Positions 13,831-43,592 of a stretch of 43,592 nucleotides of DNA are shown in pieces (position 1 is the first letter of the stretch; every line of letters begins with the position of its first letter). Both the position numbers and the translations under genes were made by a program. This DNA is from a virus: the IMG/VR virus record IMGVR_UViG_3300046536_000403, positions 1 to 43,592 of that record, one strand, 5' to 3'. The notes below the pieces were generated by a model. It was given only the letters and a program-made list of their open reading frames with translations. It did no database searches and was not told where the DNA came from.

Positions 13831-15555
13831 ATGTATCAGATTGATAACGGCACCGCTGCGTCTTCTCTGCCGGCCAGTACCGCCGCCGGCACACCGGGCT
13901 ATTTTACCGATGGCAATCCGGCCGCCGGCCAAGCGGCCACGGTGTTGCCCTCCGAATTCATGAACATGATGATGCTGGAAAATCTCAATGTCTTGAGTGC
14001 GGCCGGGGTTGTGCCGTCGAAAGCCTCGTTCAACCAGTTGGCGCTGGCGATCAAGACCATTATCCAGGGCGGCGCGACCACCTACGCGGCGGACACGGGC
14101 GTGGCCAATGCCTATGTGCTGGCCCTGACCCCGGCGATTACGGCCTACACCGGCACCACCAAGGTGCGCGGCCTGGTCGCGCACACCAATACCGGCGCCT
14201 GCACCCTGGACGCCGGCGGCGGCCCCAAGGCCTTGGTCGGTCTGGCGCATGCGGCGCTGCAAGGTGGGGAAATGTTCGCCGGCGGCTATTTCGAGGCGCA
14301 GTACAACGTCGCCCTGGGCAAGTTTATTTTGCTCTGGTGTACCGGTGCCGCCGAGCAAGTGGCCAACGCCACGCAAAGCCAGCACGCGCTGACGCTCGGC
14401 CAGGCGCAGGCGGGCGCGTCCACCTACGCCGTCGACACCGGCGTGGTCAATGCCTATGTGCTGGCCCTGACCCCGGCGGTCACGGCTTACACCAGTTGGC
14501 TCAAGGTGCGCGGCCAGGTGAGCACCACCAACACCGGCGCCAGTACCCTGGATGCCGGGGCCGGGCCCAAGCCCTTGGTCGGCCTGGCGCATGCGGCGCT
14601 GCAAGGCGGTGAAATGGTCGCCGGCGGCTATTTCGAGGCCGAGTACAACACCACCCTGGGCAAGTTTATTTTGCTCTGGTGCAGTGGGGCGCCGGAGCAG
14701 GTCGGCCCGGCCACGCAGAGTCAGCACGCGGTGCAGCTGGGGCAGATCGCCGGCCTGGTGACCGGCAGCGTCACCAGCCTCAGCGCCGACACCACGCTGA
14801 CCGCCGCGCAGAAGGGTTTGGTCATTATCGACGCGACGGCGGCGCCCCGCACGATCACCCTGCCCGCTGCCAACGCGGGCCTGGGCGTGATTGACTTCAT
14901 CGTTCGCCGCCTGGATAACACCGCGAACACCCTGACGGTCACGGCGTCCGGGACGGACAAGATCAAGTTCCACACCCACTTGAATGCGGCCGGCTATTCG
15001 TTCCTGGTACTGATGGGGGCCGGCGACTATTGGCACTTGCGCAGCGACGGCCTGGGCAGCTGGTGGCCGGTCAGCCGCTATGACAATGCCCCCGTGGGGC
15101 GGATCACGCCGGAAACGACCACCGCGTTTAATCCGGGCGGCTATGGCGCCGCGAACGGCCCTCTGTTGACGCGAGCCACCTGGCCATGGCTGTGGGATTT
15201 GGCGCAAGCCTCGGGCATGCTGACCACCGAAGCGGCACGCAGCGGCATGGAAGGCGGTTGGACCTCGGGCGATGGTGCTACCACTTTCCGGGCCCCGGAT
15301 CCTCGTGGCCGGCACCATCGATTCCTTGATGAGTCGGCCGGTATTGATGCCAGCCGGGCTGCCGGTAGTTCTCAGGCTGACCAGTTTCCTTCTCACGCTC
15401 ACCTCTTTGGCTCTACTGCTGTCGTCACATCCGGCTCCGGTACAACCGTTCTTCAGCCGGGTAATGGGAGTTCGTCTAGCACTGGCGGGGCGGGTGCTGG
15501 TTCCGAAACACGCGTGAAAACTATTGCCCATCCGGGCCGTATCAAGATGATTTGA
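13831..15555 (+). CDS. Tail fibre with duplicated module and collar-like tip
   Basis: A 574-residue receptor-binding fibre. Residues 1-85 attach to the baseplate. Two adjacent copies of a roughly 112-residue module follow (DNA about 14080-14405 and 14414-14740), each with NAYVLALTPA, LVGLAHAALQGGEM and GKFILLWC. Then comes a beta-rich segment (TLTAAQKGLVIIDATAAPRT) and a collar-like C-terminus with GGWTSGDGATTFRAPDPRGR and a QFPSHAH motif, ending HPGRIKMI. The last 250 bp use more T-ending codons than the rest, which suggests that the tip came from elsewhere. It should set host range. Confidence 0.88.
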   Translation: MYQIDNGTAASSLPASTAAGTPGYFTDGNPAAGQAATVLPSEFMNMMMLENLNVLSAAGVVPSKASFNQLALAIKTIIQGGATTYAADTGVANAYVLALTPAITAYTGTTKVRGLVAHTNTGACTLDAGGGPKALVGLAHAALQGGEMFAGGYFEAQYNVALGKFILLWCTGAAEQVANATQSQHALTLGQAQAGASTYAVDTGVVNAYVLALTPAVTAYTSWLKVRGQVSTTNTGASTLDAGAGPKPLVGLAHAALQGGEMVAGGYFEAEYNTTLGKFILLWCSGAPEQVGPATQSQHAVQLGQIAGLVTGSVTSLSADTTLTAAQKGLVIIDATAAPRTITLPAANAGLGVIDFIVRRLDNTANTLTVTASGTDKIKFHTHLNAAGYSFLVLMGAGDYWHLRSDGLGSWWPVSRYDNAPVGRITPETTTAFNPGGYGAANGPLLTRATWPWLWDLAQASGMLTTEAARSGMEGGWTSGDGATTFRAPDPRGRHHRFLDESAGIDASRAAGSSQADQFPSHAHLFGSTAVVTSGSGTTVLQPGNGSSSSTGGAGAGSETRVKTIAHPGRIKMI

Positions 15556-16090: not shown

Positions 16091-16201
16091 ATCCGTGGCC
16101 TTAGAATCAATTCTTGCCGATTTCGGACAATGCAGAGTAGGATTCTGAAAGTCTGTACCCGCCGTTTCTTATGCAAAATCTGGCGCTGTGCGGTTTAAAG
16201 A

Positions 16202-16224
16202 GAGCGGCCTACGCAGGGCCGCTC
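16202..16224 (+). other. Stem-loop in rep leader
   Basis: A perfect 8-bp stem (GAGCGGCC / GGCCGCTC) with a 7-base loop TACGCAG. There is no T tract on the plus strand. It may end the tail transcript weakly or be part of a regulatory RNA. Confidence 0.55.
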
Positions 16225-16391
16225 CGCGCGCCATCGGCATCGAGCACGGGGGGCTCAGACTTAAAAAAGTTAGAATATTTCTACACAAGCAGAATAGTTT
16301 TCGCTACCATCGTTCGCAGAAGACGCCCCAAAGAGGGCGAAGAAATGATGAAAAGGCAGTAAAAAACAGGAATTTAGCTTCGCAGAAAAGA

Positions 16392-16425
16392 AAAAACCCC
16401 AGGGCCGGCAAGCCTTGAGGTTTTT
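16392..16425 (-). terminator. Hairpin upstream of rep, terminator-like in both directions
   Basis: An imperfect stem pairs AAAAACCCCAGG with CCTTGAGGTTTTT around a GCCGGCAAG loop. Read leftward it is followed by TTTTTTCTTTT, which fits an intrinsic terminator for a minus-strand (antisense) RNA. Read rightward the right arm itself ends in T5. Confidence 0.55.
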
Positions 16426-16522
16426 GGGGCCACCAGCAAAAAACTCTGCAATGACCTAGATGAAGGTTCGAGTTTATGCGTGTCGGCCCGCTGATGCAAG
16501 CACCGACAGTTGGGGAACACGC

Positions 16523-17530
16523 ATGGACGGCTCTATCGGGCTAGCCGGCGGCGCATCTGCATTTATGTGGGGCCGTCGAGAGTATCAATATCCAGGTCAG
16601 CACCTGGGCAGCGGCAACCGCTGCGGCCATAACCCGGACAAGCCGGACCTGGACCGTTTGGCCCTGCCCAAAACCAAAAGCGGCTTTCGGCCCAAAATCC
16701 AGCAAGCGTTGATCGACGCGGCCAAGGATTATTTCTTTGCCCCCCAGGCCTTGCCGCTGCTGTCGAACCTGAGTCGCCGCGTCAACCGTGACGGGACCCC
16801 CCGGAAGAATCGCAGCGAAGGCCGCGAGGCCGAGAGTCTAGTGCTGCCCGCGATCCTGTCCATGACCGACTTCTGTTCGCTGCGCGTCGGCACGCCGATG
16901 CCTGACGGCACGTTCAAACCGCGCTCCATGGATGAAATCGCCCGCGCCTGCGGCCTGGTGGTGGCCAGTCGCGACCCGGGCGAGACCGAGCCGGTCGCTT
17001 CGCGGCGCTTCTATCGCACCATCAAGCGACTCAAGCGCGCAGCGGCGATCACGGTATTTGAGCAGTACGAAGAAAAGCCCGACGGCACCAAGCGCGCCCG
17101 GGTGGCGATCAAGGCTGTTTCGGAAAACTTCCTGATTGCCCTGGGCCGGGTGTCCTTCGCCGCGCTCAAGGAATTTCGCGACGAGTGCTCCCGCAAGTTG
17201 CGCAATTGGCGCAACAGCTTTCGTAAGGCCAGGCCGGGCGACTTCGACGCGGTCAAGGCCGCTGAGCTGGTCCGCCGCGAGCAGCTGAGACAAGGCTTTG
17301 CCACGCACAAGCCCAAGCGCAAGAACCTGACGCCGAAAACCCTGGTCGACGCCAACGGTCACGAGCAGAGCCAGGCCGACTACTCCGCCTGGTGCGCGCT
17401 GTTGGAAGCGCAGCTGGTCTCTGAGGCTGCCGAGCAGGGCCGCCGGCTAGGCCTGAAAGAACGGCTAGAAGGTCTGCGCCGACTAGGCCTGCTGACCTAT
17501 GATCAGTGGCGAATCCGCCAGCTAGAGTAG
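16523..17530 (+). CDS. repA: Plasmid-type replication initiator (IncFII RepA-like)
   Basis: About 335 residues from ATG 16523, chosen because GGGGA lies 7 bases upstream; ATG 16460 and 16565 are in-frame alternatives. The layout resembles IncFII-family RepA: a helical region with LLSNLSRRVNR (about residues 75-90), a winged-helix-like part (SMDEIARACGL near 135, then RRFYRTIKRLKRAAAITVFE near 160-180, and IALGRVSFAALKEFRDECSR near 205-225), then a basic C-terminal tail. Such proteins bind the origin, often in cis, just downstream of their gene. A strong terminator and a gene-free region follow, as in those replicons. The family assignment is by motif order, not by alignment. Confidence 0.72.
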   Translation: MDGSIGLAGGASAFMWGRREYQYPGQHLGSGNRCGHNPDKPDLDRLALPKTKSGFRPKIQQALIDAAKDYFFAPQALPLLSNLSRRVNRDGTPRKNRSEGREAESLVLPAILSMTDFCSLRVGTPMPDGTFKPRSMDEIARACGLVVASRDPGETEPVASRRFYRTIKRLKRAAAITVFEQYEEKPDGTKRARVAIKAVSENFLIALGRVSFAALKEFRDECSRKLRNWRNSFRKARPGDFDAVKAAELVRREQLRQGFATHKPKRKNLTPKTLVDANGHEQSQADYSAWCALLEAQLVSEAAEQGRRLGLKERLEGLRRLGLLTYDQWRIRQLE

Positions 17531-17584
17531 ACCTCCCGACCCGCTGTAGCCGCTTCCAGTCACTCCCCCGCCCAATCCCCCGCT

Positions 17585-17623
17585 AGCCTCGGGGCGACCC
17601 GCCATGGTCGCTCCGGGGCTTTT
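17585..17623 (+). terminator. Strong intrinsic terminator after rep
   Basis: A 15-bp stem with two wobble pairs (17585-17599 with 17606-17620) and a CGCCAT loop, followed by TTTT. It would end the rep transcript 55-90 bp past its stop, as the CIS terminator does in IncFII plasmids. Confidence 0.8.
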
Positions 17624-17799
17624 GCATGCCTGGTGTCTGGCCAACCCTCGGCCACGCCACAAAATCGCCCCCTTTCACGGCCTCAGCGGCCGAATTTTCC
17701 CCGCCGAAAGGGCTCCCCGGCGAACCTTCTCCTTAAGTTGTAATTTAAGTGTCCCCAGGAAAAATTAAGACGGTTGAGAAAACCCCTAAGTGGTGACTG

Positions 17800-17841
17800 T
17801 TCTTTACTGCTTCTTCTTTAATTCTTCTTCTTTAGCCTTGC
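17800..17841 (+). repeat. Three 14-bp direct repeats (iteron-like)
   Basis: Three consecutive 14-mers begin with TTCTTTA at 17800, 17814 and 17828 (TTCTTTACTGCTTC, TTCTTTAATTCTTC, TTCTTTAGCCTTGC). The tract is pyrimidine-rich and runs straight into the inverted repeat at 17835-17864. It lies in the gene-free region after rep. Confidence 0.65.
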
Positions 17842-17864
17842 AGCCTGACGGCCTGCTGCAAGGC
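17835..17864 (+). repeat. Inverted repeat next to the 14-bp repeats
   Basis: Perfect 9-bp arms GCCTTGCAG (17835-17843) and CTGCAAGGC (17856-17864) with a 12-base loop; CTTTGTTTT follows, so it may also act as a weak terminator. Confidence 0.6.
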
Positions 17865-18107
17865 CTTTGTTTTAATGCCTCGGCGATGCCGAGAACGGTT
17901 TGTTTACGCCTGAGCTTCGCCCAGGCAACGCAGCTACCCGCAATTCGTGCCTACGGCACGGCGGGGCCCGCACCGCTCGCCGGGGCGGCCGCCGCCGTTT
18001 CGTCAGTCAGGTGCCTTACTCCCCCTGCACGCCGGGCGCGGTCTGCGCACGCCACCCCATCGGCGTGCCGGCCTTTGGGTGAACAGGCACCGGCCGTTGG
18101 CCTGGTC

Positions 18108-18123
18108 GGCGCGCAAGCGCGCC
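18108..18123. repeat. GC-rich perfect palindrome
   Basis: GGCGCGC and GCGCGCC flank AA. It can form a tight cruciform or hairpin. It is in the gene-free region and has no T tract. Confidence 0.5.
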
Positions 18124-18297
18124 AGTGATCAGTGGCGGGGGTGTTCTGGCGCGCTTTGTTCGGCCCTGGCCGCGTCTTCGCCTGCCTGAGCGATTACCCG
18201 GTTAACGCCATAGCGGCGGGGCGCCTGGTCAATGGCGTGGCCTGGGCGACATTCTGCGCACCTGGGTGGTGCTCGGCGCTGGGTCCGTCCTTGTTGA

Positions 18298-18337
18298 TAG
18301 GATCATTGATCCTAAATAAAGCTGTACTGGTAGGATC
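18298..18337. promoter_or_regulatory. TAGGATC inverted repeat plus third copy, operator-like
   Basis: TAGGATC (18298-18304) and GATCCTA (18308-18314) form a perfect 7-bp inverted repeat around ATT; a further TAGGATC lies at 18331-18337. TTGATC at 18306-18311 and TAGGAT at 18331-18336 could be -35 and -10 boxes, though the 19-bp spacing is long. This would control the gene at 18426. Confidence 0.45.
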
Positions 18338-18425
18338 TTTGGGCCTATAGTTCGTTCCGTTGGTGGCATGCAGAAAGCCACTCGACTCTGAGGGGGCTAG
18401 TCATGCCGCCGGCGGAGAACGAGAT

Positions 18426-18713
18426 TTGAAACTTTCTGAGGTGGCGACCATCCGCACACACTTTCCCGAGGCACATTTCTGGATCGTGCGGCGGGGCTCA
18501 GCGGCGCAGTGCGGCGAGCCTACCCGGGTGTTTAACCCCGAGCATATCGGGGTGCGGGTAGAACGCACTGACCGGCTGTTACCCGACTACCTGTTTTATG
18601 CCCTGGTTGCACTGCACCAGGGCGGCAACTGGCAGAAGGTGGCAACCGGGACGCTGAGCCTGGTCAATATCCGTGTTTCAGACGTTCGACGTATCGAGCT
18701 GTCGCCACGGTGA
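18426..18713 (+). CDS. Mini HsdS-like (type I specificity subunit half-TRD) protein
   Basis: A 95-residue protein from TTG 18426, chosen because GGAG lies about 9 bases upstream. The N-terminus LKLSEVATIRT and the C-terminal run LLPDYLFYALVALHQGG then TGTLSLVNIRVSDVRRIEL match the pattern of a type I restriction specificity subunit (HsdS) target-recognition domain, but only about half of one is present and no hsdR or hsdM lies nearby. The next gene opens with DLPPLAEQ, the motif that normally follows such a domain in HsdS. It may be a stand-alone DNA-binding protein or a relic. Function is unknown. Confidence 0.65.
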   Translation: MKLSEVATIRTHFPEAHFWIVRRGSAAQCGEPTRVFNPEHIGVRVERTDRLLPDYLFYALVALHQGGNWQKVATGTLSLVNIRVSDVRRIELSPR

Positions 18714-18717
18714 GAAG

Positions 18718-18733
18718 GGGGCCGCAAGGCCCC
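18718..18733 (+). other. GCAA tetraloop hairpin between the HsdS-like gene halves
   Basis: GGGGCC and GGCCCC close a GCAA loop, 6 bp of perfect stem, just after the stop at 18713. No T tract follows, so it is more likely an mRNA-stabilising or spacing structure than a terminator. Confidence 0.5.
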
Positions 18734-18766
18734 GGACTCTCAACCGAACACACAAGGGGTACAGGT

Positions 18767-19177
18767 ATGCACATTGATTTGCCGCCACTGGCGGAACAAC
18801 TGGAACTGATTTTCGAGCAGGCCACCCGCGAAGGGATCGCCCAACTGAAAGCCAACCTCAAGGCGCCGCGTTTGCCGGGGCCAACGGAGGTCGACGAAAG
18901 CCGCTACCCACGCACGCATTTGTTGCGCGAGCGCGAGGGCTGGGCGCCGCCGCACCGCGACATTGTTGGCGCCTATTTCCGGAATTTTCAGGCGCACTTT
19001 CCCGAGTACGGCACCGACGCCAAGTTGGCCGAACTGCTGGGGCTGTCGGCTGATCGGCGGGTGCGGGCGTTTAAGGATGGCAGCAAGACCGCGCCGTATG
19101 GCGTGTGGCGGCGCTTCCTGGTGCTGACCGGGCGGGCGCCCCAGGAGATTATCCCGGTCCTGGCTTTTATGGCGTAA
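18767..19177 (+). CDS. Unknown protein with HsdS-like LPPLAEQ start
   Basis: A 136-residue protein from ATG 18767 (AAGGGGTACAGGT upstream). The N-terminus MHIDLPPLAEQLELIFEQ resembles the linker helix of type I specificity subunits. The C-terminal part (residues 50-136) is different and looks like a small helical DNA-binding domain: PPHRDIVGAYFRNFQAHFPE, LAELLGLSADRRVRAFKDGS and WRRFLVLTGRAPQEI. The pattern suggests an XRE-like regulator such as the one at 20688. The stop codon lies inside a degenerate copy of the palindrome family (19174-19185). Confidence 0.7.
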   Translation: MHIDLPPLAEQLELIFEQATREGIAQLKANLKAPRLPGPTEVDESRYPRTHLLREREGWAPPHRDIVGAYFRNFQAHFPEYGTDAKLAELLGLSADRRVRAFKDGSKTAPYGVWRRFLVLTGRAPQEIIPVLAFMA

Positions 19178-19222: not shown

Positions 19223-19249
19223 TCAATTGATACTGTTTTAATATTAAAA
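19223..19249. promoter_or_regulatory. Operator candidate TTTTAATATTAAAA (copy 1)
   Basis: A perfect 14-bp AT palindrome at 19236-19249, identical to the one before parA (25392-25405), preceded by a second palindrome CAATTG at 19224-19229. It lies in the 146-bp AT-rich gap before the gene at 19324 and is a likely binding site for a shared repressor, possibly the ParB-like protein. Confidence 0.6.
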
Positions 19250-19323
19250 AAGGTTGATTTTGCTTTGTGGTGCGAGCATGATGTTTCGCATGGATTAAGC
19301 CTTTTGAGTCGGAGCCTGGCGTG

Positions 19324-20687: not shown

Positions 20688-21029
20688 ATGAAAAGAATTC
20701 AACACTACACGCCGCCTTCGGCGGACGCGCTGGCGCACCTTAAAACCGAGCTGGGCTTTACCAGTCCGCAAATGGCCGACCTGACCGGGTTGGCCCAGGG
20801 CGCGCAATGGCGCAAGTACACCGGCGGCGTCAAGCCGCGCGAGCTGGGCTTGCACATGCACTTTTACATGGCGGCGCTGCTGACCCTGAGTGACGCCGAA
20901 CTGGCGCGGGTGGTGGCCACCATGCGCGCCCAAGGCGCCGGGGTTGAGGTCGGGCCGTTGCCGGCGGGGCCAGCGCTGCCGGCCGACCCGGACTTTTACC
21001 AGCGCTTTGTGTGCGACGACCCGACCTGA
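20688..21029 (+). CDS. XRE-like DNA-binding protein
   Basis: A 113-residue protein. Residues 10-55 look like a helix-turn-helix (SADALAHLKTELGFTSPQMA, then LTGLAQGAQWRKYTGG) of the type seen in phage and mobile-element regulators. It lacks any effector domain. It may control the surrounding small genes; it is one of the candidates for binding the dispersed palindromes. The gene is read in the same direction and the next start is 15 bp later. Confidence 0.72.
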   Translation: MKRIQHYTPPSADALAHLKTELGFTSPQMADLTGLAQGAQWRKYTGGVKPRELGLHMHFYMAALLTLSDAELARVVATMRAQGAGVEVGPLPAGPALPADPDFYQRFVCDDPT

Positions 21030-21046
21030 AAGGAGCCCGCACCATG
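21023..21046 (+). repeat. Repeated ribosome-binding segment (AAAGGA-CCC-GCC-ATG family)
   Basis: The start region ACCTGAAAGGAGCCCGCACC directly before ATG 21044 is one of a near-identical set. Others precede ATG 21334, 21594, 21876, 22149 and 22445, most reading TGAAAGGAACCCCCGCC. The TGA or TAG stop of the gene before is often part of the segment. Looser versions precede 20137, 20459 and 23836. Confidence 0.75.
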
Positions 21047-21319
21047 GCGACCTGCCTGTTTTGCACGGCGGCCCCGGCCGACCTCGGGCGTTATTGCTCG
21101 GGCTGCTATGGCCGGGTGTTTCATACCGACGGATCGCCCCTGGTGCTGGGCGATCCGGCCGACCCGTGGCGGGCCTTCAACGCCGAGGCTGACCGGGCCA
21201 TGGCCGATGAAAAGTTGCACGCCGTCCTCGCTCCCCGGATGGCGGCCCGCTGGTTTTTCCCGGTCAAGGTCGCGGCCTGGAAGCTGCGCCGTAAACCCCG
21301 ACCCCACACCCCGAACTGA
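21044..21319 (+). CDS. Small zinc-ribbon-like protein
   Basis: A 91-residue protein with two CxxC knuckles near the N-terminus (CLFC, then CSGC about 18 residues on), which suggests a zinc ribbon. The rest is an amphipathic helix region ending in a basic tail (KVAAWKLRRKPRP). Small proteins of this type are often nucleic-acid-binding. No family recognised. Confidence 0.75.
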   Translation: MATCLFCTAAPADLGRYCSGCYGRVFHTDGSPLVLGDPADPWRAFNAEADRAMADEKLHAVLAPRMAARWFFPVKVAAWKLRRKPRPHTPN

Positions 21320-21333
21320 AAGGAACCCCCGCC

Positions 21334-21579
21334 ATGACTGAGCAACTAGAGCCGCTGGACATGGATATCGCGCCAGTGCTGGCCCTGCAGGCCAAGATTG
21401 AGGCCGCGATCAAGGTGTCGATGCGGCCGTTTCTCGGTCAGGCATTGACCGCTGAAAACGGTCCCGGGCTGCGCGCCGACCTGGTCGAGGCGATCTATTG
21501 TGTGTGCTTTCCGCCCGTGACCGTCGACCTGGTTCGCGCGCCGGGCGACGGTGATCGACTGATTGTTAAATTCGACTGA
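21334..21579 (+). CDS. Small protein of unknown function
   Basis: An 81-residue acidic protein behind one of the two most alike ribosome-site repeats. The sequence shows an N-terminal acidic segment, a helix (VLALQAKIEAAIKVSMRPFL) and a C-terminal strand pair (VDLVRAPGDGDRLIVKF). No family recognised. It overlaps no neighbour and is in a co-directional array, so co-transcription is likely. Confidence 0.75.
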   Translation: MTEQLEPLDMDIAPVLALQAKIEAAIKVSMRPFLGQALTAENGPGLRADLVEAIYCVCFPPVTVDLVRAPGDGDRLIVKFD

Positions 21580-21593
21580 AAGGAACCCCCGCC

Positions 21594-21860
21594 ATGTCCC
21601 TGGTCACTCCGCTGCACTACGTTGAAATTGATACGAGCCACCTGCCACAAGAGCCGCCCGGCTACGACCGCGACGCGGTCAGGAACGCGGTCGGCCGGGC
21701 GTCGCTGCGCAGTGGCTTGAATGCTTGCCAGCTGTTGGCCGTTGGGTGTCATGCGGCCGGGCTGGATAGCGTCCCGGCCGATCTGGTCGCGAGCATCGAC
21801 ATGGCCCTGAACCGTGTCGAGTACCCGGTTGTATCCTGGGCTTCGGACCATAACGACTAG
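21594..21860 (+). CDS. Small protein of unknown function
   Basis: An 88-residue protein. It opens with a strand-like segment (LVTPLHYVEIDTSHLP) and continues as helices with CHAAGLDSVPADLVASIDMA. There is no membrane segment and no known motif. Its start follows the strongly conserved TGAAAGGAACCCCCGCC segment. Confidence 0.75.
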   Translation: MSLVTPLHYVEIDTSHLPQEPPGYDRDAVRNAVGRASLRSGLNACQLLAVGCHAAGLDSVPADLVASIDMALNRVEYPVVSWASDHND

Positions 21861-21875
21861 AAAGGAACCCCTGCC

Positions 21876-22100
21876 ATGCCCGCCGAATTTACCGACCACT
21901 CTTTCAGGGGCGTGCGCTTTCAGGTCGCCCGCCTGGATCAATCGCCCGGTGCTCGCGCCGTGCTCGATGAGCTGCATCACCTTCACCGCATCATGGTGGA
22001 GTGTGACGCGGTGCCCGCCGAGCGGCCCCGGTTTGTTAAGGCCGATCAAGGCCCGGCCGATTGGGTCCAGGTGCTGCCCGAGGCGAAGGCAAGCGCGTGA
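21876..22100 (+). CDS. Small protein of unknown function
   Basis: A 74-residue protein of mixed charge (FRGVRFQVARLDQSPGARAV, then LDELHHLHRIMVECDAVP). It has no recognised domain. Its TGA stop (22098-22100) forms part of a palindrome of the GTKACNNGTMAC family, so the end of the gene and the site share bases. Confidence 0.75.
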   Translation: MPAEFTDHSFRGVRFQVARLDQSPGARAVLDELHHLHRIMVECDAVPAERPRFVKADQGPADWVQVLPEAKASA

Positions 22101-22108
22101 CGCGTAAC
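22097..22108. repeat. GTKACNNGTMAC-family palindrome
   Basis: GTGACGCGTAAC overlaps the TGA stop of the gene before it. The gap to the next gene (22149) holds nothing else apart from a repeated ribosome segment. Confidence 0.6.
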
Positions 22109-22148
22109 GACCTGTAAACAATTCGCACACAAGAAAGGAACCCCCGCC

Positions 22149-22430
22149 ATGCCGACGCTTGAATCGGGCAAGCTGCCCGCACTGACCGATGCCCAGGTGC
22201 AGGCCGGTGCGCGCCCGGGTGAAAGCTGGGAGCAGGCGCGGCGCCGGCTGGAGGCGGCGAACTGGCCCGGTCCACCGCCGCCGGAAAACATGGACCAAGA
22301 CGCCGATCTGCTGCTGAGCGGTTGGATCAGTGATCGCGGCCTAGAAGGCGAGTTGATCGCCTGGGCGCCCGGCGAGCTGGGCGCGGGCCATCCGGGCGTT
22401 GATGTCATTACCCCTTACGAACCGACTTGA
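22149..22430 (+). CDS. Small protein of unknown function
   Basis: A 93-residue acidic protein. The middle repeats helix-forming residues (ARPGESWEQARRRLEAANWP) and the C-terminal part is loop-rich. No recognised domain. It is in the array of genes with matching ribosome segments. Confidence 0.72.
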   Translation: MPTLESGKLPALTDAQVQAGARPGESWEQARRRLEAANWPGPPPPENMDQDADLLLSGWISDRGLEGELIAWAPGELGAGHPGVDVITPYEPT

Positions 22431-22444
22431 AAGGAAACCCCGCC

Positions 22445-22702
22445 ATGCCCCTGATCCAGATTGAGCAAGACAGCCCCGAGGTAATCGAAAATGCCTGCGA
22501 CCTGATCGCCTCAATGGCCGCCGGCATGCGTGAAGAGCCCGGCGACGTGGACAATCATTACGGCCGCGCCATGCACGTCACCGGCTTTTTGGCGGCGTTG
22601 AAACATCACGAACTGATCAGCCACACAGCCCACGACCGGCTGCAACACGAGGTGTGGCAGGCGAGCCAGGCGGTAGCGGCCGAAGAGGGCGCCGAAGGAT
22701 AG
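22445..22702 (+). CDS. Small helical protein of unknown function
   Basis: An 85-residue protein, mostly helical (ENACDLIASMAAGMREEPGD, then HELISHTAHDRLQHEVWQAS). No family is recognised. It is the last gene of this part of the array; a palindrome (22708-22719) and an intrinsic terminator follow. Confidence 0.75.
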   Translation: MPLIQIEQDSPEVIENACDLIASMAAGMREEPGDVDNHYGRAMHVTGFLAALKHHELISHTAHDRLQHEVWQASQAVAAEEGAEG

Positions 22703-25381: not shown

Positions 25382-25391
25382 ACGCATACGG

Positions 25392-25405
25392 TTTTAATAT
25401 TAAAA
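25392..25405. promoter_or_regulatory. Operator or centromere candidate TTTTAATATTAAAA (copy 2)
   Basis: A perfect palindrome between the par promoter and the ParA start. Copy 1 is at 19236. A half-perfect version (TTTTAATATTGGAA, 26086-26099) lies between ParA and the ParB-like gene. It is a likely site for autoregulation by the partition proteins. Confidence 0.65.
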
Positions 25406-25424
25406 AAATATGCGAGGGCGTAAC

Positions 25425-26069
25425 ATGGCAGTTGTAGTCGTAGGGAATACCAAGGGCGGCGTAGGCAAGACCACGACGGTGGTTAATATTTCCGCTGAAC
25501 GCGCTCGCGCGGGGCGGCGGGTGCTGGTGGTCGATGGCGATCGTCAAGCTACCGCACAAAAGGCGATCGCCATCCGTGACGGCGCGGGTCTGCTGCCGGC
25601 GATTGCCTGTGCGACTTACGCGGACGGGCCGGTGTTGCGCTCCCAAGTGCTGACGCAAATGGATCTGTACGACGACATCATTATCGATGCGGGTGGCCGG
25701 GACTCGACGGCACTACGGGCGGCGATGTCGCTGGCTGACGTGCTGCTGATCCCGTTTGAGCCTCGCAGCTTTGAGGTGTGGGCCTTGGAAGACATCGCCG
25801 CGCTGGTAGATGAGGTGCGCAGCGTGCGGGACGGCCTGCGCGTTTACGCCTTCTTAAACAAGGCGGAGTCTGGTGTGATGTCTGCGGACAATCGGGCAGC
25901 GTCCGAGGCCTTAGCGGATTACCCGCAGATTGAATACTTGTCCAGGAAGCTGGTGCTGCGCAAGGCGTACTCTAATGCGGCCGGCGCTGGCATGTCAGTG
26001 GCCGAGGTGAAGGATAAAGACCCCAAGGCGATAGCCGAGTTAAAGGCGCTTATTGCTGCTGTATTTTGA
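25425..26069 (+). CDS. parA: ParA partition ATPase, type Ib
   Basis: A 214-residue ParA-like ATPase with the deviant Walker A motif near residues 8-17 (NTKGGVGKTT, signature Lys10 and Lys15), DGD near residue 40 and a DAGGRD loop near residue 95. It lacks the N-terminal DNA-binding helix-turn-helix of type Ia ParA, so it belongs to the short type Ib class (ParF-like). It should segregate the circular element using ATP and the partner at 26103. ATG 25425 is preferred to 25410 because GAGGG lies 6-10 bases upstream. Confidence 0.92.
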   Translation: MAVVVVGNTKGGVGKTTTVVNISAERARAGRRVLVVDGDRQATAQKAIAIRDGAGLLPAIACATYADGPVLRSQVLTQMDLYDDIIIDAGGRDSTALRAAMSLADVLLIPFEPRSFEVWALEDIAALVDEVRSVRDGLRVYAFLNKAESGVMSADNRAASEALADYPQIEYLSRKLVLRKAYSNAAGAGMSVAEVKDKDPKAIAELKALIAAVF

Positions 26070-26085
26070 TATACAATTAATCTGT

Positions 26086-26099
26086 TTTTAATATTGGAA
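26086..26099. promoter_or_regulatory. Half-palindrome of the shared AT operator (copy 3)
   Basis: TTTTAATATTGGAA, ten bases identical to the full palindrome and then degenerate. It lies just before the ParB-like start. Confidence 0.5.
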
Positions 26100-26102
26100 C
26101 AA

Positions 26103-26426: not shown

Positions 26427-26473
26427 AAAGCGCATTGTTTTGATATTTTATTAATATTAAAACAATGCGCTTT
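26427..26473. terminator. Long bidirectional terminator-like hairpin of the par operon
   Basis: Arms of 21 bp with one mismatch (26427-26447 and 26453-26473) and a 5-base loop; T tracts follow on both strands. The inner part of the stem contains AATATT, so it overlaps the shared AT motif. It would end ParAB transcription from the left and any minus-strand transcripts from the right, and it may also act as a centromere. Confidence 0.75.
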
Positions 26474-30610: not shown

Positions 30611-30969
30611 CGGCACCCCGGCGGGAGCTGATCGAGAAAAACCAGGGTCGGCCGAGCCGCACCGTGCTGGTCGCTGATGTGCTGCGTTTTGAGGCCTGCC
30701 GTAAATATGTGGTGGCGCATACGGCGGCGGGGTTGTTCACGTTGCGCGACAGCCTGCGCACCCTGGAGGCTGAGTTTTCCGCGCAGTTCGTCCGGGTGCA
30801 TAGCGCCCATTTGGTCGCCCGCGCCCTTATCCGCCACCTGGTATATCAATACGACCGCGTCTATCACATCGAGCTGACCGGGGTGTTGAGCCGGGTGCCT
30901 GTGTCGCGCGGCGCTTATCCCCGGTTGATCCGTGAACGCCCCGACCTGCAGCGGCTCACGTCTGTCTGA
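30607..30969 (+). CDS. LytTR-like DNA-binding protein
   Basis: A 120-residue protein starting with GTG 30607, overlapping the preceding stop. Residues about 25-112 fit a LytTR DNA-binding domain: EACRKYVVAHTAAGLFTLRD, then LEAEFSAQFVRVHSAHLVAR and HIELTGVLSRVPVSRGAYPR. It lacks a receiver domain. LytTR proteins control promoters with spaced direct repeats; in this place it may regulate recombinase or late genes. The target is unknown. Confidence 0.75.
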   Translation: MTAPRRELIEKNQGRPSRTVLVADVLRFEACRKYVVAHTAAGLFTLRDSLRTLEAEFSAQFVRVHSAHLVARALIRHLVYQYDRVYHIELTGVLSRVPVSRGAYPRLIRERPDLQRLTSV

Positions 30970-43198: not shown

Positions 43199-43592
43199 GT
43201 GTCTCGTTCTAAAACCTGGTCCCACCTGTTGGGCCTCCCCCGTCGTATCCGTGGCGCCAAGGCCGACGATGATGCCCCGATCGTCGAAGACTTCAACAAT
43301 GACGACCCGCTCGACGAGCAATACGTCGAAGACGAGGACGACGACAAAAAAGCCCGAGGCAAAAAAGCCAGGGGTAAGCGCGCCGGCGACGACGACGAGA
43401 AACCCGACGCCGAAGACGATGATGATGACGTCGACGCCGAAGATGACGACGACAAGCCCGACGCCAAAGCCCGAGGCAAAAAAGCCAGGGGTAAGCGCGC
43501 CGAAGACGACGATGTCGACGCCGATGAGGACGAAGACGACGAGGAAAAGCCCAGCGCGACCCGTGCCTCTGAGCGCGCCCGCTGCGCGCGGA
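43199..43592 (+). CDS. Scaffold-like acidic head protein, N-terminal part (continues at 1)
   Basis: The first 131 codons of the gene that continues at position 1. It starts with GTG 43199, GAGAGGG lies 8-12 bases upstream. After about 40 residues it becomes a tract of acidic blocks (DEDDD) alternating with basic blocks (KKARGKKARGKRA). A 36-bp stretch is repeated exactly at 43349-43384 and 43466-43501, a 117-bp period, so the gene has grown by internal duplication. It probably assembles the capsid interior; see the entry at 1-387. Confidence 0.65.
   Translation, partial: MSRSKTWSHLLGLPRRIRGAKADDDAPIVEDFNNDDPLDEQYVEDEDDDKKARGKKARGKRAGDDDEKPDAEDDDDDVDAEDDDDKPDAKARGKKARGKRAEDDDVDADEDEDDEEKPSATRASERARCAR
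43349..43384 (+). repeat. 36-bp exact repeat in the scaffold-like gene (copy 1)
   Basis: Identical to 43466-43501 (and to 1-36), in the same reading frame, encoding KARGKKARGKRA. The identity at DNA level points to a recent duplication. Confidence 0.9.
43466..43592 (+). repeat. Terminal overlap: identical to bases 1-127
   Basis: The 127 bases are the same at both ends. The reading frame crosses the join without interruption, so the molecule is circular (43,465 bp unique). The length equals a common assembly overlap, and it lies in mid-gene far from terS, so it is not a packaging repeat. Confidence 0.95.

What the first reader, a model, noticed from the sequence alone, without database searches (positions are those of the whole stretch)
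17531..18425. Gene-free region after rep with three 14-bp direct repeats as candidate origin
Direct repeats TTCTTTA at exact 14-bp spacing (17800, 17814, 17828), a 9-bp inverted repeat, and a strong terminator at 17585-17623 come right after rep. IncFII-type replicons have CIS and origin in that order. No DnaA box was seen, so opening may depend on Rep only.
Basis: partly seen in the sequence, partly recalled or inferred. Interest (0 to 1): 0.62.

Follow-up and report, generated by a model that had tools for sequence, protein, structure and literature searches.

The report
Phage-plasmid replication origin downstream of rep
The gene-free stretch after the rep gene is very probably the replication start point of a Pseudomonas-type phage that lives as a plasmid; the likely protein-binding repeats are a conserved set just beside the ones first noticed, followed by hairpins whose sequence pattern suggests they fold on one DNA strand to help start copying.

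Summary
TTCTTTA occurs three times in the window, only here, at exact 14-bp spacing (0 of 1000 shuffled regions show any such triplet). The window is a circular phage-plasmid. Its Rep belongs to the RepA-Pa/pRA2 family of Pseudomonas-Aeromonas plasmids and is not IncFII RepA. Some 40 related loci show one layout after rep: terminator, TTAAGT direct repeats one 20-22 bp step apart, A+T/pyrimidine-rich tract, hairpins. The conserved, probable Rep-binding repeats are therefore TTAAGT-type (17733-17792). The TTCTTTA copies are a lineage-specific tract beside them and the least stable 30 bp of the region, so they are more likely the melting element. The missing DnaA box is confirmed; more distant relatives have one, so it looks lost or replaced in this clade. 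Downstream hairpins (17835-17965) are shared with replicons that use the unrelated RepJ. Their triloops and mismatches fit folding of the bottom strand as DNA, the leading-strand template if the fork leaves rep. I propose an oriV plus a host-recognised single-strand priming or loading signal. The origin location is well supported by comparison. The priming role is inference. No experiment was run. In a RepJ plasmid the published minimal replicon ends before the hairpins.

The parts
16392..16425 (+). Control hairpin upstream of rep (AAAAACC.CAGGGC-CGGCAA-GCCTTG.GGTTTTT), candidate antisense-RNA target/terminator
   Evidence: RNA fold; similar A/T-flanked hairpin upstream of rep in relatives, several with TTGGCG loops. 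Function inferred by analogy with REx-C/IncI-type control.
16476..16544 (+). Putative 22-codon leader ORF overlapping the rep start
   Evidence: Read from sequence; relatives have short leader ORFs, e.g. MKV-stop. Inferred.
16523..17530 (+). rep, RepA-Pa/RepA-RA2 family initiator (alternative start 16460)
   Evidence: tblastn to P. antarctica pP27494_2 49%, Aeromonas/Halomonas 43-46%, pRA2 34%; hhalign to pRA2 RepA 99.4%; AlphaFold model has winged-helix-like elements, PDB matches weak.
17585..17623 (+). Terminator-like hairpin right after rep (position of CIS in IncFII)
   Evidence: Sequence; hairpin at the same place in relatives.
17733..17739 (+). Extra TTAAGTT copy 12 bp before the array
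17745..17751 (+). Iteron 1, TTAAGTG
17765..17771 (+). Iteron 2, TTAAGAC
17786..17792 (+). Iteron 3, CTAAGTG, followed by GTGACTGTTCTTT (conserved as GTGnTGnTCTTT)
17800..17834 (+). Three TTCTTTA copies at 14-bp steps; candidate DNA unwinding element
   Evidence: least stable 30 bp of the region is 17804-17833, and 17734-17833 is the 5th least stable separate 100-bp stretch of the genome.
17835..17864 (.). Hairpin 1, 10-bp stem
   Evidence: position conserved, sequence varies.
17879..17893 (.). Hairpin 2, CTCGGC-GAT-GCCGAG
   Evidence: Stem nearly invariant in 11 relatives.
17908..17926 (.). Hairpin 3, GCCTGAGC-TTC-GCCCAGGC (bottom strand holds GCGAAGC)
17937..17965 (.). Hairpin 4, CCCGC..CGTGCC-TAC-GGCACG..GCGGG; 15-bp core identical in pRA2, pP27494_2 and RepJ replicons
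18115..18156 (.). 11-bp inverted repeat enclosing the motif CAGTGGCGGGGGTG at 18130-18143
   Evidence: CAGT..GGGG motif conserved in 16 relatives at 506-634 nt after rep. Function unknown; possible primer start (inference).

Best explanation
17531 to about 18160 is the replication origin (oriV) of a circular phage-plasmid with a RepA-Pa/pRA2-family initiator. Proposed working: (1) rep mRNA ends at the hairpin 17585-17623. (2) Rep binds the TTAAGT-type direct repeats at 17733-17792, whose 20-21 bp spacing (about two helical turns) puts them on one face of the helix. (3) The adjoining A+T/pyrimidine-rich TTCTTTA tract (17800-17834) melts, without a DnaA box in this clade. (4) Helicase is loaded and the fork moves right, away from rep. 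(5) The exposed bottom strand folds into a row of hairpins (17835-17965), two of them with GNA-type DNA triloops, which act as a Rep-independent, host-recognised signal for primase or primosome loading on the leading-strand template. Shown by comparison: the layout, the repeats, the hairpins and their strand bias. Inferred: Rep binding, melting, fork direction and the priming role.
For: Phage-plasmid: 127-bp identical ends and virion genes, ParA, Rep homologous to plasmid RepA. Iterons: in 17 of 33 elements three TTAAGT-like copies at 20-23 bp steps, in 30 of 33 at least two; shuffles 0-0.5% and typically 1-3%. The array starts at a similar distance, about 140-240 nt, after rep across Pseudomonas, Aeromonas, Halomonas, Delftia and Nitrosococcus. 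TTCTTTA tract thermodynamically weak. Hairpins: 152 against 60 in shuffles. Top-strand triloops C(TNC)G 68 to C(GNA)G 1; RepJ replicons 16 to 0. Mismatches in unique hairpins: 35 tolerated on the bottom strand (G-T, G-A) against 7 on the top; expected fraction 0.52, nominal p 3e-5. The stretch just after rep is balanced, 6 to 5. Bottom strand folds 4.7 kcal/mol better as DNA in the window. The same hairpin occurs with the unrelated RepJ, as reported for SaL 5 (PMC5304414). In pPsv48C the published minimal replicon ends 242 nt after repJ (PMC5304414).
Against: No binding, melting or replication data exist for this element. The window's iterons are degenerate (TTAAGAC, CTAAGTG). In pPsv48C the DNA beyond 242 nt, which holds the hairpins, was dispensable for replication (PMC5304414), although those test plasmids carried an E. 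coli vector that might supply its own priming signals (my inference). In RepJ replicons alone the mismatch bias is weak (8 to 4, p 0.39). Related sequences are not independent, so p-values are nominal. The strand bias would also fit a leftward RNA.
Confidence: 0.7

Rival explanations
1. One reading: the three TTCTTTA repeats are themselves the Rep-binding iterons of an IncFII-type origin that opens by Rep alone.
For: Exact 14-bp spacing not expected by chance; position after rep; no DnaA box.
Against: The triplet is absent from relatives, whose post-rep repeats are TTAAGT; Rep is not IncFII RepA.
Confidence: 0.12
2. Origin as above, but the hairpins act as RNA (transcription termination, mRNA stability or a leftward regulatory RNA) and not as single-stranded DNA.
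For: Hairpins near the end of a transcript are common; strand bias would also fit a leftward RNA; the published RepJ minimal replicon excludes them (PMC5304414).
Against: Mismatch types disfavour the rightward RNA; triloop register does not fit RNA UNCG tetraloops; no Rfam match; no minus-strand promoter-like site found there.
Confidence: 0.25
3. The true origin lies elsewhere, for example upstream of rep or inside rep as in ColE2-like RepA-PFP plasmids, and this stretch is only a 3' untranslated and recombination region.
For: pRA2 was reported to need a large upstream region with four potential iterons (PMC5304414 citing Kwong 1998); ColE2-type origins can lie within or just after rep.
Against: Strong conservation of the post-rep array; downstream DNA reported essential in pRA2 and RepJ (PMC5304414).
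Confidence: 0.08

Closest known systems
RepA-Pa replicon of Pseudomonas antarctica plasmid pP27494_2 (PMC5304414)
   Same: Homologous Rep (49% identity); post-rep TTAAGTG/TTAGGTG/TTAAGTA array, CTTCTGCTTTATCTC tract, hairpins TGCCTCGGC..GCCGAG and CGTGCCTACGGCACG.
   Different: A mobilizable plasmid, not a phage; TTAAGT spacing 21 and 20; no TTCTTTA triplet; a different block further downstream (CCGGATAAATC..).
pRA2 replicon (RepA-RA2 family), Pseudomonas alcaligenes
   Same: Homologous Rep (34%; hhalign 99.4%); two TTAAGTGTCGG repeats; same 15-bp hairpin core.
   Different: DnaA box beside the repeats, absent in the window; reported to need upstream iterons and repB (PMC5304414).
RepJ replicon of pPsv48C (REx-C / REx-R modules)
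   Same: Control hairpins before rep, essential DNA just after rep, then the same hairpin module (SaL 5).
   Different: Rep not homologous (hhalign 1.1%); no iterons reported.
IncFII (R1/R100) oriR
   Same: Order rep, terminator (CIS), origin, hairpins.
   Different: Rep not homologous; R100 has a DnaA box, the window has none; repeat sequences differ.
Phage G4 complementary-strand origin (DnaG primase site)
   Same: Stem-loops on the template strand; primer-sense start C-AGTAGGG resembles the conserved C-AGTGAGGGG.
   Different: In G4 the hairpins lie downstream of the primer start in primer sense; here the conserved hairpins lie upstream of the motif.

Membership tests
RepA-Pa / RepA-RA2 replicon family | Homologous initiator protein | tested here: met
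RepA-Pa / RepA-RA2 replicon family | Conserved post-rep repeats and SaL 5-like hairpins | tested here: met
   exact 15-bp hairpin core shared with pP27494_2 and pRA2.
RepA-Pa / RepA-RA2 replicon family | REx-C control module (SaL 1-3) before rep | tested here: inconclusive
   blastn of 16091-16540 finds no plasmid match, but a similar A/T-flanked hairpin is present.
RepA-Pa / RepA-RA2 replicon family | Autonomous replication dependent on Rep and post-rep DNA | not testable with these tools
   Needs a mini-replicon.
IncFII replicon | IncFII RepA protein (PF02387) | tested here: not met
   No PF02387 match; hhalign to R100 RepA probability 0.5%.
IncFII replicon | Terminator (CIS) followed by origin downstream of rep | tested here: met
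   layout only.
IncFII replicon | DnaA box at the start of the origin | tested here: not met
   None within one mismatch between 16288 and 18764.
Iteron origin | Several direct repeats near rep at helical-phase spacing | tested here: met
   TTAAGT-like copies at 17745, 17765, 17786.
Iteron origin | Rep binds the repeats | not testable with these tools
   Needs footprinting.
G4-type single-strand initiation site | Stem-loops on template 5' of a CTG primer start (downstream in primer sense) | tested here: not met
   Conserved hairpins are upstream of the CAGT motif in primer sense.
G4-type single-strand initiation site | Primed by DnaG on SSB-coated strand | not testable with these tools
   Needs in vitro priming.

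The most novel reading that the evidence does not exclude
The post-rep hairpins are a portable, Rep-independent single-stranded-DNA signal on the leading-strand template, built largely from GNA triloop hairpins, shared and exchanged among unrelated Pseudomonas plasmid and phage-plasmid replicons and read by host primase or PriA, while this clade opens its origin without DnaA.
Probability: 0.35. Interest if true: 0.65.

Novelty: new member of a known kind. Interest (0 to 1): 0.45.

Why it matters
It gives a testable origin to a family of phage-plasmids and plasmids (about 170 plasmid records match this Rep, some of them in clinical Pseudomonas aeruginosa) whose Rep has no Pfam or NCBIfam model and whose origin I did not find described in the papers I could search. 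It separates the Rep-binding repeats from the melting tract. It also suggests what the published but unexplained SaL 5 structures may do: act as DNA hairpins on one strand. The DnaA-box-plus and DnaA-box-minus members form a natural comparison for DnaA-dependent and Rep-only opening.

Tried and rejected
Rfam scan of the replicon: nothing. Pfam, NCBIfam and PDB sequence searches with Rep: nothing at the thresholds used; a relative's weak HTH_36 hit. Single-sequence AlphaFold model useless (pLDDT 37); the alignment-based model (pLDDT 74) gave only weak winged-helix PDB matches, all E > 0.1. GC skew shows no clear origin signal. blastn of the upstream control region against plasmids: no match. 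blastn of the hairpin region alone found only one relative plasmid plus two short, probably chance hits. R100 post-rep DNA inspected for the CAGT motif: only CAGTAC copies without a G run. G4-type membership rejected on geometry. Top-strand RNA folding rejected on mismatch types and loop register. In RepJ replicons the mismatch test alone was not significant. One automatic hairpin survey used a locus in the wrong orientation (L083); corrected.

Full report
WHAT THE WINDOW IS. The window is a virus record of 43,592 bp. Its first and last 127 bp are identical, which fits a circular genome of about 43,465 bp; an overlap of that size may simply be the assembler's k-mer. It carries head, portal, terminase, sheath, baseplate and lysis genes, a tyrosine recombinase, a ParA-like partition gene and a Rep homologous to plasmid RepA proteins. 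It is a phage-plasmid.

THE OBSERVATION. TTCTTTA occurs at 17800, 17814 and 17828 and nowhere else in the window. No shuffled region of 1000 gives any equally spaced 7-mer trio. Copies 1 and 2 are 12/14 alike; copy 3 shares only the 7-mer. The inverted repeat is 10 bp (17835-17844/17855-17864). A terminator-like hairpin sits at 17585-17623. No DnaA box with up to one mismatch lies between 16288 and 18764. The gene-free stretch ends near 18423. From 18293 on the DNA resembles a conserved operon of P. syringae plasmids, so 18293-18422 belongs to the next operon rather than to the origin.

REP. Rep (16523-17530; 16460 is an alternative start) has no Pfam, NCBIfam or PDB sequence match. tblastn finds 167 plasmid records, mostly Pseudomonas and Aeromonas, among them pP27494_2 (49%), the type of the RepA-Pa family of PMC5304414, and pRA2 (34%; hhalign 99.4%). 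That paper lists RepA-Pa and RepA-RA2 as non-homologous; the profile comparison says they are homologous. IncFII RepA is not a detectable relative. The alignment-based model has winged-helix-like elements, but PDB matches are weak.

CONSERVED LAYOUT AFTER REP. I read the DNA after rep in about 40 relatives from IMG/VR, plasmids, phages and Pseudomonas genomes. The order is terminator hairpin, TTAAGT-type repeats, A+T/pyrimidine-rich tract, hairpins. In the near Pseudomonas clade the repeats sit at exactly 21 + 21 bp; in the window at 20 + 21 (17745, 17765, 17786) with an extra copy at 17733. Three-copy arrays occur in 17 of 33 elements and arrays of at least two copies in 30 of 33; shuffles give 0-0.5% and, in most cases, 1-3%. 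In pRA2-type members the core reads TTAAGTGTCGG. MAFFT places the window's copies in register with the relatives'. I conclude that these, not TTCTTTA, are the likely Rep sites.

THE TTCTTTA TRACT. The first TTCTTT belongs to a conserved element after the last iteron (GTGnTGnTCTTT; TGTTCTTTTCC in L064, L068, L072 and L075). Copies two and three are special to the window, although relatives such as L075 and L081 also have a pyrimidine-rich tract there. The least stable 30 bp of the region is 17804-17833, and 17734-17833 is the fifth least stable separate 100 bp in the genome. A melting element is the simplest reading.

DNAA. Eleven of 35 elements carry a perfect TTATNCACA just upstream of the repeats. 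The window and its near clade do not. Absence of a consensus box does not exclude weak boxes.

HAIRPINS. Downstream DNA is rich in hairpins: 152 against 60 in shuffles. Triloop hairpins are C(TNC)G on the top strand 68 times and C(GNA)G once. On the bottom strand these are C(GNA)G loops, a class known to me as unusually stable in DNA; hairpin 3 contains GCGAAGC on that strand. The triloop register does not fit RNA UNCG tetraloops. In the window hairpins 3 and 4 are of this class; hairpin 2 (loop GAT) and hairpin 1 (10-nt loop) are not. Single mismatches in unique hairpins are 35 of the kind tolerated on the bottom strand (G-T, G-A) against 7 on the top; expected fraction 0.52, nominal p 3e-5. 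The stretch just after rep is balanced, 6 to 5. Wobble alone gives 16 to 5, p 0.015. In the window the bottom strand folds 4.7 kcal/mol better as DNA. The relatives share ancestry, so the p-values overstate independence. In RepJ replicons the loops agree (16 to 0), but mismatches give only 8 to 4, p 0.39.

REP-INDEPENDENCE. The 18-mer TTCGTGCCTAYGGCACGG is in 5 of 299 Pseudomonas genomes. In three it lies with this Rep family. In two (G024, G147) no relative of this Rep was found beside it. In G024 the gene before it is RepJ, 78% identical to pPsv48C RepJ and not homologous to this Rep; the G147 loci show the same post-rep layout, but too little upstream DNA was held to read the gene. PMC5304414 already noted SaL 5-like sequences after non-homologous rep genes. 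A signal that changes partners is more likely read by a host factor than by Rep.

MAPPING KNOWN EXPERIMENTS. In pPsv48C the minimal replicon ends at 30,760 (PMC5304414), 242 nt after repJ, before the CGTGCCTTCGGCACG hairpin. Thus the early post-rep DNA is essential and the hairpins are not, at least in constructs that also carried an E. coli vector. The same paper cites essential downstream DNA in pRA2.

PRIMING HYPOTHESIS. If the fork moves away from rep, the bottom strand is the leading-strand template, the strand the hairpins favour. R1 is known to me to start its leading strand at a primase site downstream of oriR (from memory). A conserved motif CAGT[AG]..GGGG lies 506-634 nt after rep in the window and 16 relatives, and resembles the G4 primer start read from NC_001420. 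But the hairpin geometry differs from G4, so this is not filed as a G4-type site.

VERDICT. Origin location: likely. TTAAGT repeats as Rep sites: likely. TTCTTTA as melting tract: more likely than not. Hairpins as a leading-strand DNA signal: plausible, about 0.35-0.4. All functional steps remain untested.

Noticed in passing
19230-19251, 25386-25407, 26080-26101, 26427-26473: Palindromic TGTTTTAATATTAAAACA-like motif repeated around the ParA-like gene (25410-26069) and at 19230; candidate partition (parS) or par-operator sites.
   Followed up: no
21025-22447: Six 22-nt repeats (ACTGAAAGGAACCCCCGCCATG) spaced 260-296 bp: the same ribosome-binding site and start codon in front of a row of small ORFs.
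   Followed up: no
18293-19177: DNA 72-79% identical to a two-gene operon and its promoter region in P. syringae and P. fluorescens plasmids, next to parA in pA506 and p1448A-B; repeated TAGGATC motifs at 18295-18348 look like an operator.
   Followed up: partly
14065-14706: Internal 300-bp tandem duplication (83% identical) in the tail-fibre region.
   Followed up: no
1-127 and 43466-43592; 43349-43475: Exact 127-bp terminal repeat, probably the assembly overlap of a circular genome, plus a 63% similar third copy of low complexity.
   Followed up: partly
16392-16425 and relatives L002, L017, L018, L020: Upstream control hairpins in several relatives carry TTGGCG-type loops like those I recall for IncI/IncB antisense-controlled replicons; possible pseudoknot control not tested.
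   Followed up: partly
window Rep versus L048 (pRA2) and L017 (pP27494_2): RepA-Pa and RepA-RA2, described as non-homologous families in PMC5304414, are homologous by profile comparison.
   Followed up: yes
L016, L020, L029, L046-L049, L054, L055: Perfect DnaA box just upstream of the post-rep repeats, absent in the window's clade, which often has a GC-rich palindrome there instead.
   Followed up: partly
L046 and L047 after rep: The TGCCTCGGC..GCCGAG hairpin unit is tandemly duplicated or triplicated with its spacer, showing array growth.
   Followed up: no
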